From assembly GCF_964340395.1 (NCBI RefSeq), contig NC_135558.1:12504001-12568000 (forward strand): 64,000 nucleotides of DNA, given 5' to 3'. The notes beneath the pieces are model-generated. The model saw nothing but the letters and a program-made list of their open reading frames with translations, did no database searches and was not told the origin of the DNA. The first letter of the stretch is position 1, and each line of letters starts with the position of its first letter. This document shows, piece after piece, positions 39,401-42,400 of the stretch. Source of the stretch: Glandiceps talaboti. Its lineage: Eukaryota; Hemichordata; Enteropneusta; Spengelidae. The position numbers and the translations under genes were made by a program.

Positions 39401-42400
39401 GAACTACCAGAATTGACATTTGACAAGGTTTCATGACCAAAAGTTGTTATCTCTCCCCCCCCCTCCCCCCCCCCTCTCTCTCTCTCTCTCTCTCTCTCTC
39501 TCTCTCTCTCTCTCTCTCTCTCTCTCTCTCTCTCTCTCTCTCTCTCTCTCTCTCTCTCTCTCTCTCTCTCTCTCTCTCTCTCTCTCTCTCTCTCTCTCTC
39601 TCTCTCTCTCATGTAATTTATATTTTTTTAAAGTAATCTATGGTAAAGTGCTGGTGAATGACTTGTATGTCTATTTCTAGGCACTTTAAACCAGATGGTA
39701 GAAGAGATCAAACAAGCTGTGGTTTTCATTGCAAACAAGTATCCACAATCAAGGTATTATTCAGTAATTACCTGTACATTTGTTCCTGCAATGATTCTTA
39801 GAGTGAACTTTTTATCTTTCATCTGCACACCTAACAAATTTATTTGGTCTGTGCCAGGGGTAATAAATGTGTGCTTTGAGCATGATGTGGTATTCTGCTA
39901 TGTAAGAATGCATTATTATCAAATTTGTTTTAGAAGTAATGTTCGCAATGTATTCATTGTTGTGTTGTGTTCTAGGGGTATATTCCTTGTTGTTGTGTTC
40001 TTGGGGTATATTCCTTGTTGTTGTGTTGTGTTCTTGGGGTATATTCATTGTTGTGTTGTGTTCTAGGGGTATATTCATTATTGTGTTGCATTCTAGGGGC
40101 ATATTCATTATTGTGTTGTGTTCTTGGGGTATATTCATTGTTGTGTTGTGTTCTAGGGGTATATTCATTATTGTGTTGTGTTCTAGGGGCATATTCATTA
40201 TTGTGTTGTGTTCTAGGGGTATATTCATTATTGTGTTGTGTTCTAGGGGTATATTCATTATTGTGTTGTGTTCTTGGGGTATATTCATTATTGTGTTGTG
40301 TTCTAGGGGTATATTCATTATTGTGTTGTGTTCTAGGGGTATATTCATTATTGTGTTGTGTTCTTGGGGTATATTCATTGTTGTGTTGTGTTCTAGGGGT
40401 ATATTCCTTGTTGTTGTGTTCTAGGGGTATATTCATTGTTGTGTTGTGCTCTAGGGGCATATTCATTATTGTGTTGTGTTCTAGGGGCATATTCATTATT
40501 GTGTTGTGTTCTAGGGGTATATTCATTATTGTGTTGTGTTCTAGGGGTATATTCATTATTGTGTTGTGTTCTTGGGGTATATTCATTGTTGTGTTGTGTT
40601 CTAGGGGTATATTCATTATTGTGTTGTGTTCTAGGGGCATATTCATTATTGTGTTGTGTTCTAGGGGTATATTCATTATTGTGTTGTGTTCTAGGGGCAT
40701 ATTCATTATTGTGTTGTGTTCTAGGGGTATATTCATTATTGTGTTGTGTTCTAGGGGCATATTCATTATTGTGTTGTGTTCTAGGGGCATATTCATTATT
40801 GTGTTGTGTTCTAGGGGTATATTCATTGTTGTGCTGTGTTCTAGGGGTATATTCATTATTGTGCTGTGTTCTAGGGGTATATTCATTATTGTGTTGCATT
40901 CTAGGGGTATATTCATTATTGTGTTGTGTTCTAGGGGTATATTCATTATTTAGTTGTCTTCTAGGGTTATATTCATTATTGTATTGTGTTCTAGGGGTAT
41001 ATTCATTATTGTGTTGTGTCCTCGGGGTATATTCATTTTTGTGTTGTCTTCTAGGGTTATATTCATTATTGTGTTGTCTTCTAGGGGTGTATTCATTATT
41101 GTGTTGTCTTCTAGGGGTATATTCATTATTGTTTTGTGTTGTAGGGGTATATTCATTATTGTGTTGCATTCTAGGGGTATATTCATTGGTGGCCATTCAG
41201 CAGGTGCTCATCTATCTGCCATGATGATGTCAGTTGATTGGACAACTCACAATTTACCAAAAGATATTTTGAAAGGTAGGTATACAATACTAAATACATA
41301 GATGAAAGTTTTCAAGAAAATAAACTACTTTGTGCTGCTGTAACAATGTTAGAAGAATTTTCCCCATAATCAACCCAGTTGGGACCTGATAGGATTGGGG
41401 TTGGCTTGTGAAGGAGTTAATCCCATGCACTGACGGAGGCTGCAATGGATTGCATACTCCCAAGGGCGTTGCGGAAGTGTAAAGTGTTGTGCCACTATAA
41501 TGCTGTGCCAGGGGCAGTGTGCCATCTAATGATTTTGTTGATGTGAGTCGCAATGATAAACACTGACATTTTTTTGTGAGTCACCATATAGGAAGAGATA
41601 GGGAAACACCAAAATTTGGTACGTCACTAAAATTTGGTTTGTGTCAGTGGCATGTCAGATTGGCTTAGAGAGGGCACACTGGCTAGGAGTGATGATTGTA
41701 AAAGGCTTTGAGCACAGTGTGGGAAAGTATACAGTATAAAAATTAACATTACAATTGATAAAATTTACATACTACTATTCATTGATGGACACTGGCTTGA
41801 TTGTCCTTGTGTAAACAGGCTTGAAAAAGTAGAGATATATCTATTTTGTGAATTTAAAATTTGTGACAATTTTCACCAGGTGCAGGGTTCGTAAACGTCT
41901 GTGAATGTCGTAGGATGGTAACTTGATACACAAATTAGTTGAAAATCAATCTGTTTGTTTCATAGAATAAAAAAAAACTTTCAAAATGAGACAAATTCCC
42001 TTGCAAACAGCTGTTTAGATTGTGTCTCACTCAGGATTATTCAAATATGCGGCATTTGCATGTGAACAACCCAGATAAGGAATGTTTATATTTTGGTGAT
42101 TACTTGCTAGTGAGTCATCACAAGTTCTCCACCTCCAATCATACAGTCAGTCATATGCAAAATAGGGTCCCGGGCACAGGCAGTTGTGCCTTTAAAGTGT
42201 GTGAACCTTGTGTCTATTGTATTATACTAGTAACTCAAAACATTTGTCGTATAGCAGGTATCAAGCTTACACTAGACTGTAAGATACGTCGTGACGTTTC
42301 GCCCTCACCGGCCTCCTCTCACCCTAGGGGTTGGCCGATGGTTGAGGGGCCCTGTCACGGCGTACCTTACAGACTAGCTTAACACCTGACACCTGTCGTA

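What the first reader, a model, noticed from the sequence alone, without database searches (positions are those of the whole stretch)
39950..41186. Minisatellite built from AFMID's own 3' splice site, in frame with the catalytic exon
The 30-bp unit is TTGTGTTGTGTTCTAG plus the first 13 bases of exon 7, and the last unit is the genuine junction. About 41 potential acceptors are therefore lined up before the exon that encodes the nucleophile Ser. The unit is ten codons long, so using an upstream acceptor inserts multiples of [10 protein letters not shown] without shifting frame. Only the last eight or so units are open to the exon, because a TAG at 40951 cuts the frame. Some units have lost the AG (CTTGGGG).
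Basis: partly seen in the sequence, partly recalled or inferred. Interest (0 to 1): 0.85.

Follow-up and report, generated by a model that had tools for sequence, protein, structure and literature searches.

The report
Splice-site minisatellite in AFMID gene
In a marine animal's kynurenine formamidase gene, the short stretch where an intron meets the next exon has been copied about 40 times in a row, and a few other genes of the same genome carry similar arrays at their exon edges, so the cell must pick the one correct splice site among dozens of near-identical ones.

Summary
The array is real: 39951-41188, 41 acceptor-bearing units of about 30 bp, the last being the true exon 7 junction of an intact ten-exon AFMID gene. 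34 of 41 units keep AG (33 decoys plus the genuine site). Six decoys are in frame and stop-free; 27 meet a stop. By recalled weights no decoy scores below the genuine site.

The kind is known: lancelet 'mirages', minisatellites spanning exon-intron boundaries (PMC3087553, PMC3902484). By its mitochondrial code this genome is not a chordate's; probably an acorn worm (inference). AFMID is not alone: nine tandem arrays of the donor CAGGTAAGT lie in a stretch with one array of the reversed motif. Three of the nine abut exons with protein matches: Ile-tRNA ligase, homogentisate dioxygenase (arrays on both sides) and, weakly, a DEAD-box helicase.

Best explanation: a passive array, perhaps seeded by a 9-bp direct repeat, grown by slippage or unequal exchange, tolerated because the exon-adjacent acceptor is used. 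Regulated acceptor choice has no support here; RNA is needed. The in-frame spacing can be chance. New member of a known kind, apparently outside cephalochordates.

The parts
36401..44404 (+). AFMID-like (kynurenine formamidase) gene, ten coding exons: 36401-36421, 37636-37726, 37996-38094, 38818-38866, 39214-39299, 39681-39753, 41175-41275, 42499-42577, 43234-43369, 44300-44404; a last short exon may be missing
   Evidence: All nine introns GT-AG, phases fit, 280 aa open; best PDB match Drosophila kynurenine formamidase 4e11, E 3.1e-25
39681..39753 (+). Exon 6, the donor side of the intron that holds the array
39951..41188 (+). Minisatellite of 41 acceptor-bearing units of about 30 bp; begins and ends with TATTCATTG
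39951..39959 (+). Intronic copy of the 9-bp direct repeat TATTCATTG (array left edge); holds a yUnAy-like branch-site motif
41180..41188 (+). Exonic copy of TATTCATTG (within codons for I-F-I-G), array right edge
40951..40953 (+). In-frame TAG that limits stop-free read-through to the last six upstream acceptors
40965..41174 (+). Region of the six in-frame upstream acceptors (first extension bases at 40965, 40995, 41055, 41085, 41115, 41145); the unit ending at 41024 has CG, not AG
41175..41275 (+). Exon 7 with GHSAG nucleophile motif; genuine acceptor AG at 41173-41174

Best explanation
It is a 'mirage': a minisatellite that arose by tandem duplication across an intron-exon boundary. Shown: the unit is the last 16 bases of the intron plus the first 14 of exon 7; the array starts in the intron and ends in the exon with the same 9-mer; the edges are more diverged than the middle; the modelled gene is intact. 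Inferred: the 9-bp direct repeat (one copy about 25 nt before the first AG, one in the exon) seeded the first duplication by slippage or unequal exchange; unequal exchange then expanded and homogenised the middle; the exon side is held fixed by the codons. Also inferred: splicing tolerates the array because nearly every unit carries its own branch-site-like motif (TTCAT, kept in 38 of 41 units), pyrimidine-rich tract and, in 34 of 41, AG, so exon definition from the exon 7 donor can take the acceptor next to the exon. Slips to the last six upstream acceptors would add 10 to 70 residues in frame; slips further up would give messages with a premature stop. The array is most likely passive, and one of several in this genome.
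For: Array and unit parse. Terminal 9-mers and the branch-like motif 19 nt before AG in the four acceptors printed; TTCAT broken in 3 of 41 units. Mean differences from consensus 3.0 in the first 3 units, 0.97 in the next 30, 2.0 in the last 8. Intact GT-AG gene model, no insertion at the exon 6/7 joint in the alignment to fly KFase. The 16-mer occurs at 5 other places in the genome, none an array of this unit within 90 bases, so the unit is local, not a mobile satellite. Same architecture at other exons: Ile-tRNA ligase exon with a 46-bp donor unit x4.3, homogentisate dioxygenase exon with 7 acceptor and 5 donor copies, genuine ones included, DEAD-box-like exon with 38-bp donor units over about 2.9 kb. 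9 donor-motif arrays against 1 reversed-motif array in one stretch. Published lancelet cases with length instability and regular splicing (PMC3087553, PMC3902484, passages).
Against: No RNA was available, so use of the exon-adjacent acceptor is not shown. By recalled weights the genuine acceptor is no better than any of the 33 decoys, so how it would win is unexplained. The class III alcohol dehydrogenase gene, where lancelets have mirages, has none here. A terminal 9-mer overlap is what any array with a partial last copy shows, so it is weak evidence for the seed. Of 11 acceptor-motif arrays whose downstream flank I read, only 2 end at a plausible exon, neither with a database match. An exon-likeness test did not separate the nine donor arrays from background (3 of 9 against a null rate of 0.20). 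One donor array shows no exon (L064/L065).
Confidence: 0.75

Rival explanations
1. A functional switch: upstream in-frame acceptors are used to make AFMID isoforms with multiples of ten extra residues before the nucleophile strand.
For: Six upstream acceptors are in frame and stop-free, and each scores higher than the genuine one by recalled weights.
Against: Two of three forward frames of the unit are open anyway; AG is lost in 7 of 41 units; 27 of 33 decoys bring a stop; the inserts would be hydrophobic repeats of the strand next to the active-site serine (inference).
Confidence: 0.08
2. A damper: slips to upstream acceptors make messages with premature stops that decay, so array length tunes AFMID level.
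For: 27 of 33 decoys give a stop, and no decoy scores below the genuine site by recalled weights.
Against: No RNA or length-variant data were available; nothing shows conservation of array length.
Confidence: 0.12
3. The unit count, or part of the array, is an assembly product.
For: Long arrays can be mis-assembled (general knowledge); the same assembly holds its mitochondrial genome as repeated copies in one contig.
Against: Units carry scattered variants and diverged edges, unlike a simple artefact; other exons show such arrays too.
Confidence: 0.05

Closest known systems
Lancelet mirages (Adh3, troponin C, globins BflGb6 and BflGb9, PGBD5)
   Same: Tandem repeats whose unit spans an exon-intron boundary, at 5' or 3' edges; many units keep AG or GT; concerted evolution inside and diverged edges; regular splicing reported (PMC3087553 and PMC3902484, passages)
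   Different: Here probably an ambulacrarian, not a lancelet; 41 units, against 6 and 3 in the two BflGb6 haplotypes; a 30-bp unit that keeps the frame; one exon (homogentisate dioxygenase) has arrays at both edges
Intron gain by tandem duplication of AGGT proto-splice sites
   Same: Tandem copies of splice signals can later be recruited as new introns or exons (discussed in PMC3087553, passages)
   Different: No new intron is seen here; the intron has only grown longer
NAGNAG and other tandem acceptors (recalled)
   Same: Several acceptors side by side, in-frame choice possible
   Different: Those are a few nt apart and few in number; here 33 decoys over 1.2 kb

Membership tests
Mirage (boundary-spanning minisatellite) | Repeat unit contains both intronic and exonic sequence of a real splice junction | tested here: met
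   16 intronic + 14 exonic bases; last unit is the exon 7 junction
Mirage (boundary-spanning minisatellite) | Host gene is a real, intact gene with the junction at a normal GT-AG intron | tested here: met
   Ten exons, 280 aa, PDB match E 3.1e-25; the gene model is mine, without RNA
Mirage (boundary-spanning minisatellite) | Internal homogenisation with diverged edges | tested here: met
   Mean differences 3.0 / 0.97 / 2.0 for units 0-2 / 3-32 / 33-40
Mirage (boundary-spanning minisatellite) | Length instability between haplotypes or somatic cells | not testable with these tools
   One assembly, no reads
Mirage (boundary-spanning minisatellite) | Normal splicing despite the array | not testable with these tools
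   No RNA data
Mirage (boundary-spanning minisatellite) | Occurs in a lancelet, as in the reports found (a matter of taxon, not of structure) | tested here: not met
   Mitochondrial COX1: four ATA codons, some at sites recalled as conserved Ile, no AAA codon; tRNA-Lys CTT. Contig C24 is 18.5 Mb, so at least 24 large contigs if numbering follows size. The reading of these signs rests on recalled knowledge
Functional alternative-acceptor array | Messages using upstream units | not testable with these tools
   No RNA data

The most novel reading that the evidence does not exclude
In this probable acorn worm, tandem duplication of exon-intron boundaries is a recurrent, genome-wide mutation mode at both donor and acceptor edges, sometimes at both edges of one exon. 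It would give dozens of natural loci where the spliceosome must choose among near-identical sites, and a standing supply of raw material for exon extension and intron gain, outside the lancelets where it was described.
Probability: 0.45. Interest if true: 0.72.

Novelty: new member of a known kind. Interest (0 to 1): 0.52.

Why it matters
An acceptor present 34 times in front of one exon is a natural test of how a splice site is chosen when sequence cannot tell candidates apart. If such arrays are common in an ambulacrarian as well as in lancelets, boundary duplication may be an old or recurrent deuterostome habit and a plausible route to longer introns, exon extensions and new introns.

Tried and rejected
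Rejected: a dispersed satellite that happened to land at an exon; the 16-mer occurs at only five other places, none an array of this unit within the 90 bases read on each side. Rejected as evidence: the open frame, because it can be chance. Weak: block duplication of unit types (longest repeated block 4; 60 of 2000 shuffles reach it). No use: an exon-likeness criterion for the donor arrays (3 of 9 met it, null rate 0.20 at random window positions, and the HGD and DEAD-box-like exons failed it). No support: peptides of L059, L060, L061, L062 (Pfam; PDB for L062 only) and L066, L067 (Pfam; PDB for L067 only) gave no match; L046's peptide was not searched; VPS13 for L062 and COG5 for L067 are recalled guesses. 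Pfam also gave nothing for the Ile-tRNA ligase peptide, which rests on the PDB match.

Full report
What is there. The window (C11:12504001-12568000 of a 590-Mb assembly in 47 contigs) holds an AFMID-like gene on the + strand. I modelled ten coding exons with nine GT-AG introns and consistent phases, giving 280 open residues. The best PDB match is Drosophila kynurenine formamidase, E 3.1e-25, with HGG, GHSAG and DHFD motifs in place and no insertion where exon 6 meets exon 7; Pfam gives alpha/beta hydrolase families. The last few residues may lie in an exon that I did not find.

The array. Tandem Repeats Finder places it at 39951-41187, period 30, 41.3 copies, 92% matches. My parse gives 41 units with an acceptor position; the last is the genuine junction at 41174/41175. 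Most units are 30 bp; units 1 and 15 are 28 bp, unit 2 is 33 bp, and unit 0 is partial. In 34 of 41 units the acceptor is AG (33 decoys and the genuine site); in six it is TG and in one CG.

Is it more than chance? Of 16 minisatellites of the window compared with the edges of the ten AFMID exons, this one scores 59 against a shuffle maximum of 32; two others are marginal and 13 are not significant. The score is partly circular, since the bases just before exon 7 are array. The independent fact is that the last copy runs 14 bases into a conserved coding exon. Exons of other genes in the window were not modelled.

Frames. Splicing exon 6 to each of the 33 upstream AGs was simulated. Six (30, 60, 90, 120, 180 and 210 nt upstream) extend exon 7 in frame without a stop; 27 meet a stop, ten of them also out of frame. 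The consensus unit is open in two of three forward frames, so the open frame needs no special cause.

Acceptor strength. With approximate 3' splice-site weights that I recalled, not taken from a call, the genuine site scores 1.29, no decoy scores lower, and two decoys tie. AFMID's eight other acceptors score from -0.1 to 5.7. The four array acceptors that I printed have a yUnAy-like TTCAT 19 nt before AG; TTCAT is kept in 38 of 41 units. The genuine site is thus not marked by its own strength.

Origin. The array begins in the intron with TATTCATTG and ends in the exon with TATTCATTG. The exonic copy lies in the codons I-F-I-G next to GHSAG. This fits a duplication between two short direct repeats, though any array with a partial last copy shows such an overlap. 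Units 3-32 are near-identical (mean 0.97 differences from consensus), the first three (3.0) and last eight (2.0) are more diverged, as unequal exchange would give. In that count the missing first bases of unit 0 were taken as matches.

Not a dispersed repeat. The 16-mer TTGTGTTGTGTTCTAG has 26 exact matches in the genome; 21 lie in this array. The other five are single within 90 bases on each side: three share what looks like one dispersed repeat, one lies in a TTGTG-type simple repeat, one is alone.

What is known. [quoted passage not shown] passages seen). The original Adh3 report was not seen. My seven searches of the held library (one search was about hemichordate genomes) listed no such report outside lancelets that I recognised. 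Three listings were cut (15 of 29 papers, 15 of 148, 12 of 39), most listed papers were not opened, and so this is not proof that none exists. A C. elegans paper links intronic minisatellites to alternative splicing (PMC4039745, passages); the passages do not describe units that span a boundary.

Which animal. The assembly's 51-kb contig C40 holds the mitochondrial genome; in the 18 kb that I read, the sequence recurs after 15,435 bp. Its COX1 has four ATA codons, some at places recalled as conserved isoleucine, no AAA codon, and six AAG; its tRNA-Lys has anticodon CTT (the same scan also gave a doubtful Lys/Asn TTT call on the other strand inside ND5). By recalled knowledge this fits echinoderms and hemichordates, not chordates. 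The chordate-like gene order and GC of 53% suggest an acorn worm. Two published acorn worms have 23 chromosomes in 0.93 and 1.16 Gb (PMC11175523, passages). Here contig C24 is 18.5 Mb and C28 is 0.22 Mb, which is near but not equal to 23. The identification is inference. The class III alcohol dehydrogenase gene carries no boundary array, unlike lancelets.

Is AFMID alone? No. I searched the genome for three perfect donors CAGGTAAGT spaced 12-40: 493 matches against 172 for the pattern read backwards. The 100 listed places form nine arrays between the start of C1 and C4:4,314,414; the reversed motif has one array in that stretch and 11 in its first 100 of 172 places, up to C18. One of those 11 (C14:23.238M) itself carries CAGGTAAGT on its other strand. 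The stretch ends where the list was cut, at the ninth array, so 8 against 1 is the stricter count, and one control motif is a thin null. I read the upstream flank of all nine. Three abut exons with protein matches: an Ile-tRNA ligase exon (E 4.4e-7), a homogentisate dioxygenase exon (E 1.2e-8) and a DEAD-box-like exon (PDB E 0.021, Pfam E 0.048; weak). Five more have exon-like reading frames by eye only (L046, L059, L060, L061, L062); one (L064/L065) shows no exon. A mechanical exon-likeness test was met by 3 of 9, against 0.20 at random places. The 78-nt homogentisate dioxygenase exon has seven acceptor copies on its 5' side and five donor copies on its 3' side, the genuine ones included.

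Acceptor arrays elsewhere. A looser acceptor pattern gave 2426 matches against 1352 reversed, inflated by dispersed repeats. From the listed places, all on C1, I chose 11 arrays by eye, leaving out the dispersed TTTTCCAGGG family, and read their downstream flanks. Two end at a plausible exon (L066, L067); L067 also repeats its exon tail once after the donor. Neither has a database match.

How it most likely works. The array is a passive by-product of slippage or unequal exchange. It persists because adding complete splice modules (branch-like motif, pyrimidine tract, AG) upstream leaves the exon-adjacent module intact, and exon definition can use the nearest one. Mistakes would yield a ladder of six in-frame forms and many messages with early stops. 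Every step after the DNA anatomy is inference; RNA decides it.

Noticed in passing
L063 (C4:3733300-3734700, reverse strand): Homogentisate dioxygenase exon with a 39-bp acceptor array upstream and a 42-bp donor array downstream, so one 78-nt exon sits between two boundary arrays.
   Followed up: yes
L058 (C2:31286592-31289526, reverse strand): About 2.9 kb of a 38-bp donor-bearing unit right after a DEAD-box-like exon (weak protein match).
   Followed up: partly
L067 (C1:25195000-25195500): Plausible exon with a 40-bp acceptor array upstream and a second copy of its tail downstream of the donor; COG5 by recall, no database match.
   Followed up: partly
L064 and L065 (C4:4312600-4314500): 37-bp array of GGGTAAGT/CAGGTAAGT units of at least 1.3 kb with no visible exon before it: a donor-motif array that may not be a boundary array.
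   Followed up: partly
L044, L045 (C40, 51,222 bp): Mitochondrial genome assembled in a contig about three times its 15,435-bp repeat length, GC 53%, with cytochrome b between ATP6 and COX3 by eye.
   Followed up: partly
window 43413-43806: 70-bp tandem repeat in the AFMID intron after exon 9, holding CAG-GTACTGAG; no significant match to any AFMID junction.
   Followed up: partly
window 49806-52376: Exons that look by eye like a SCYL-type pseudokinase gene downstream of AFMID; not searched.
   Followed up: no
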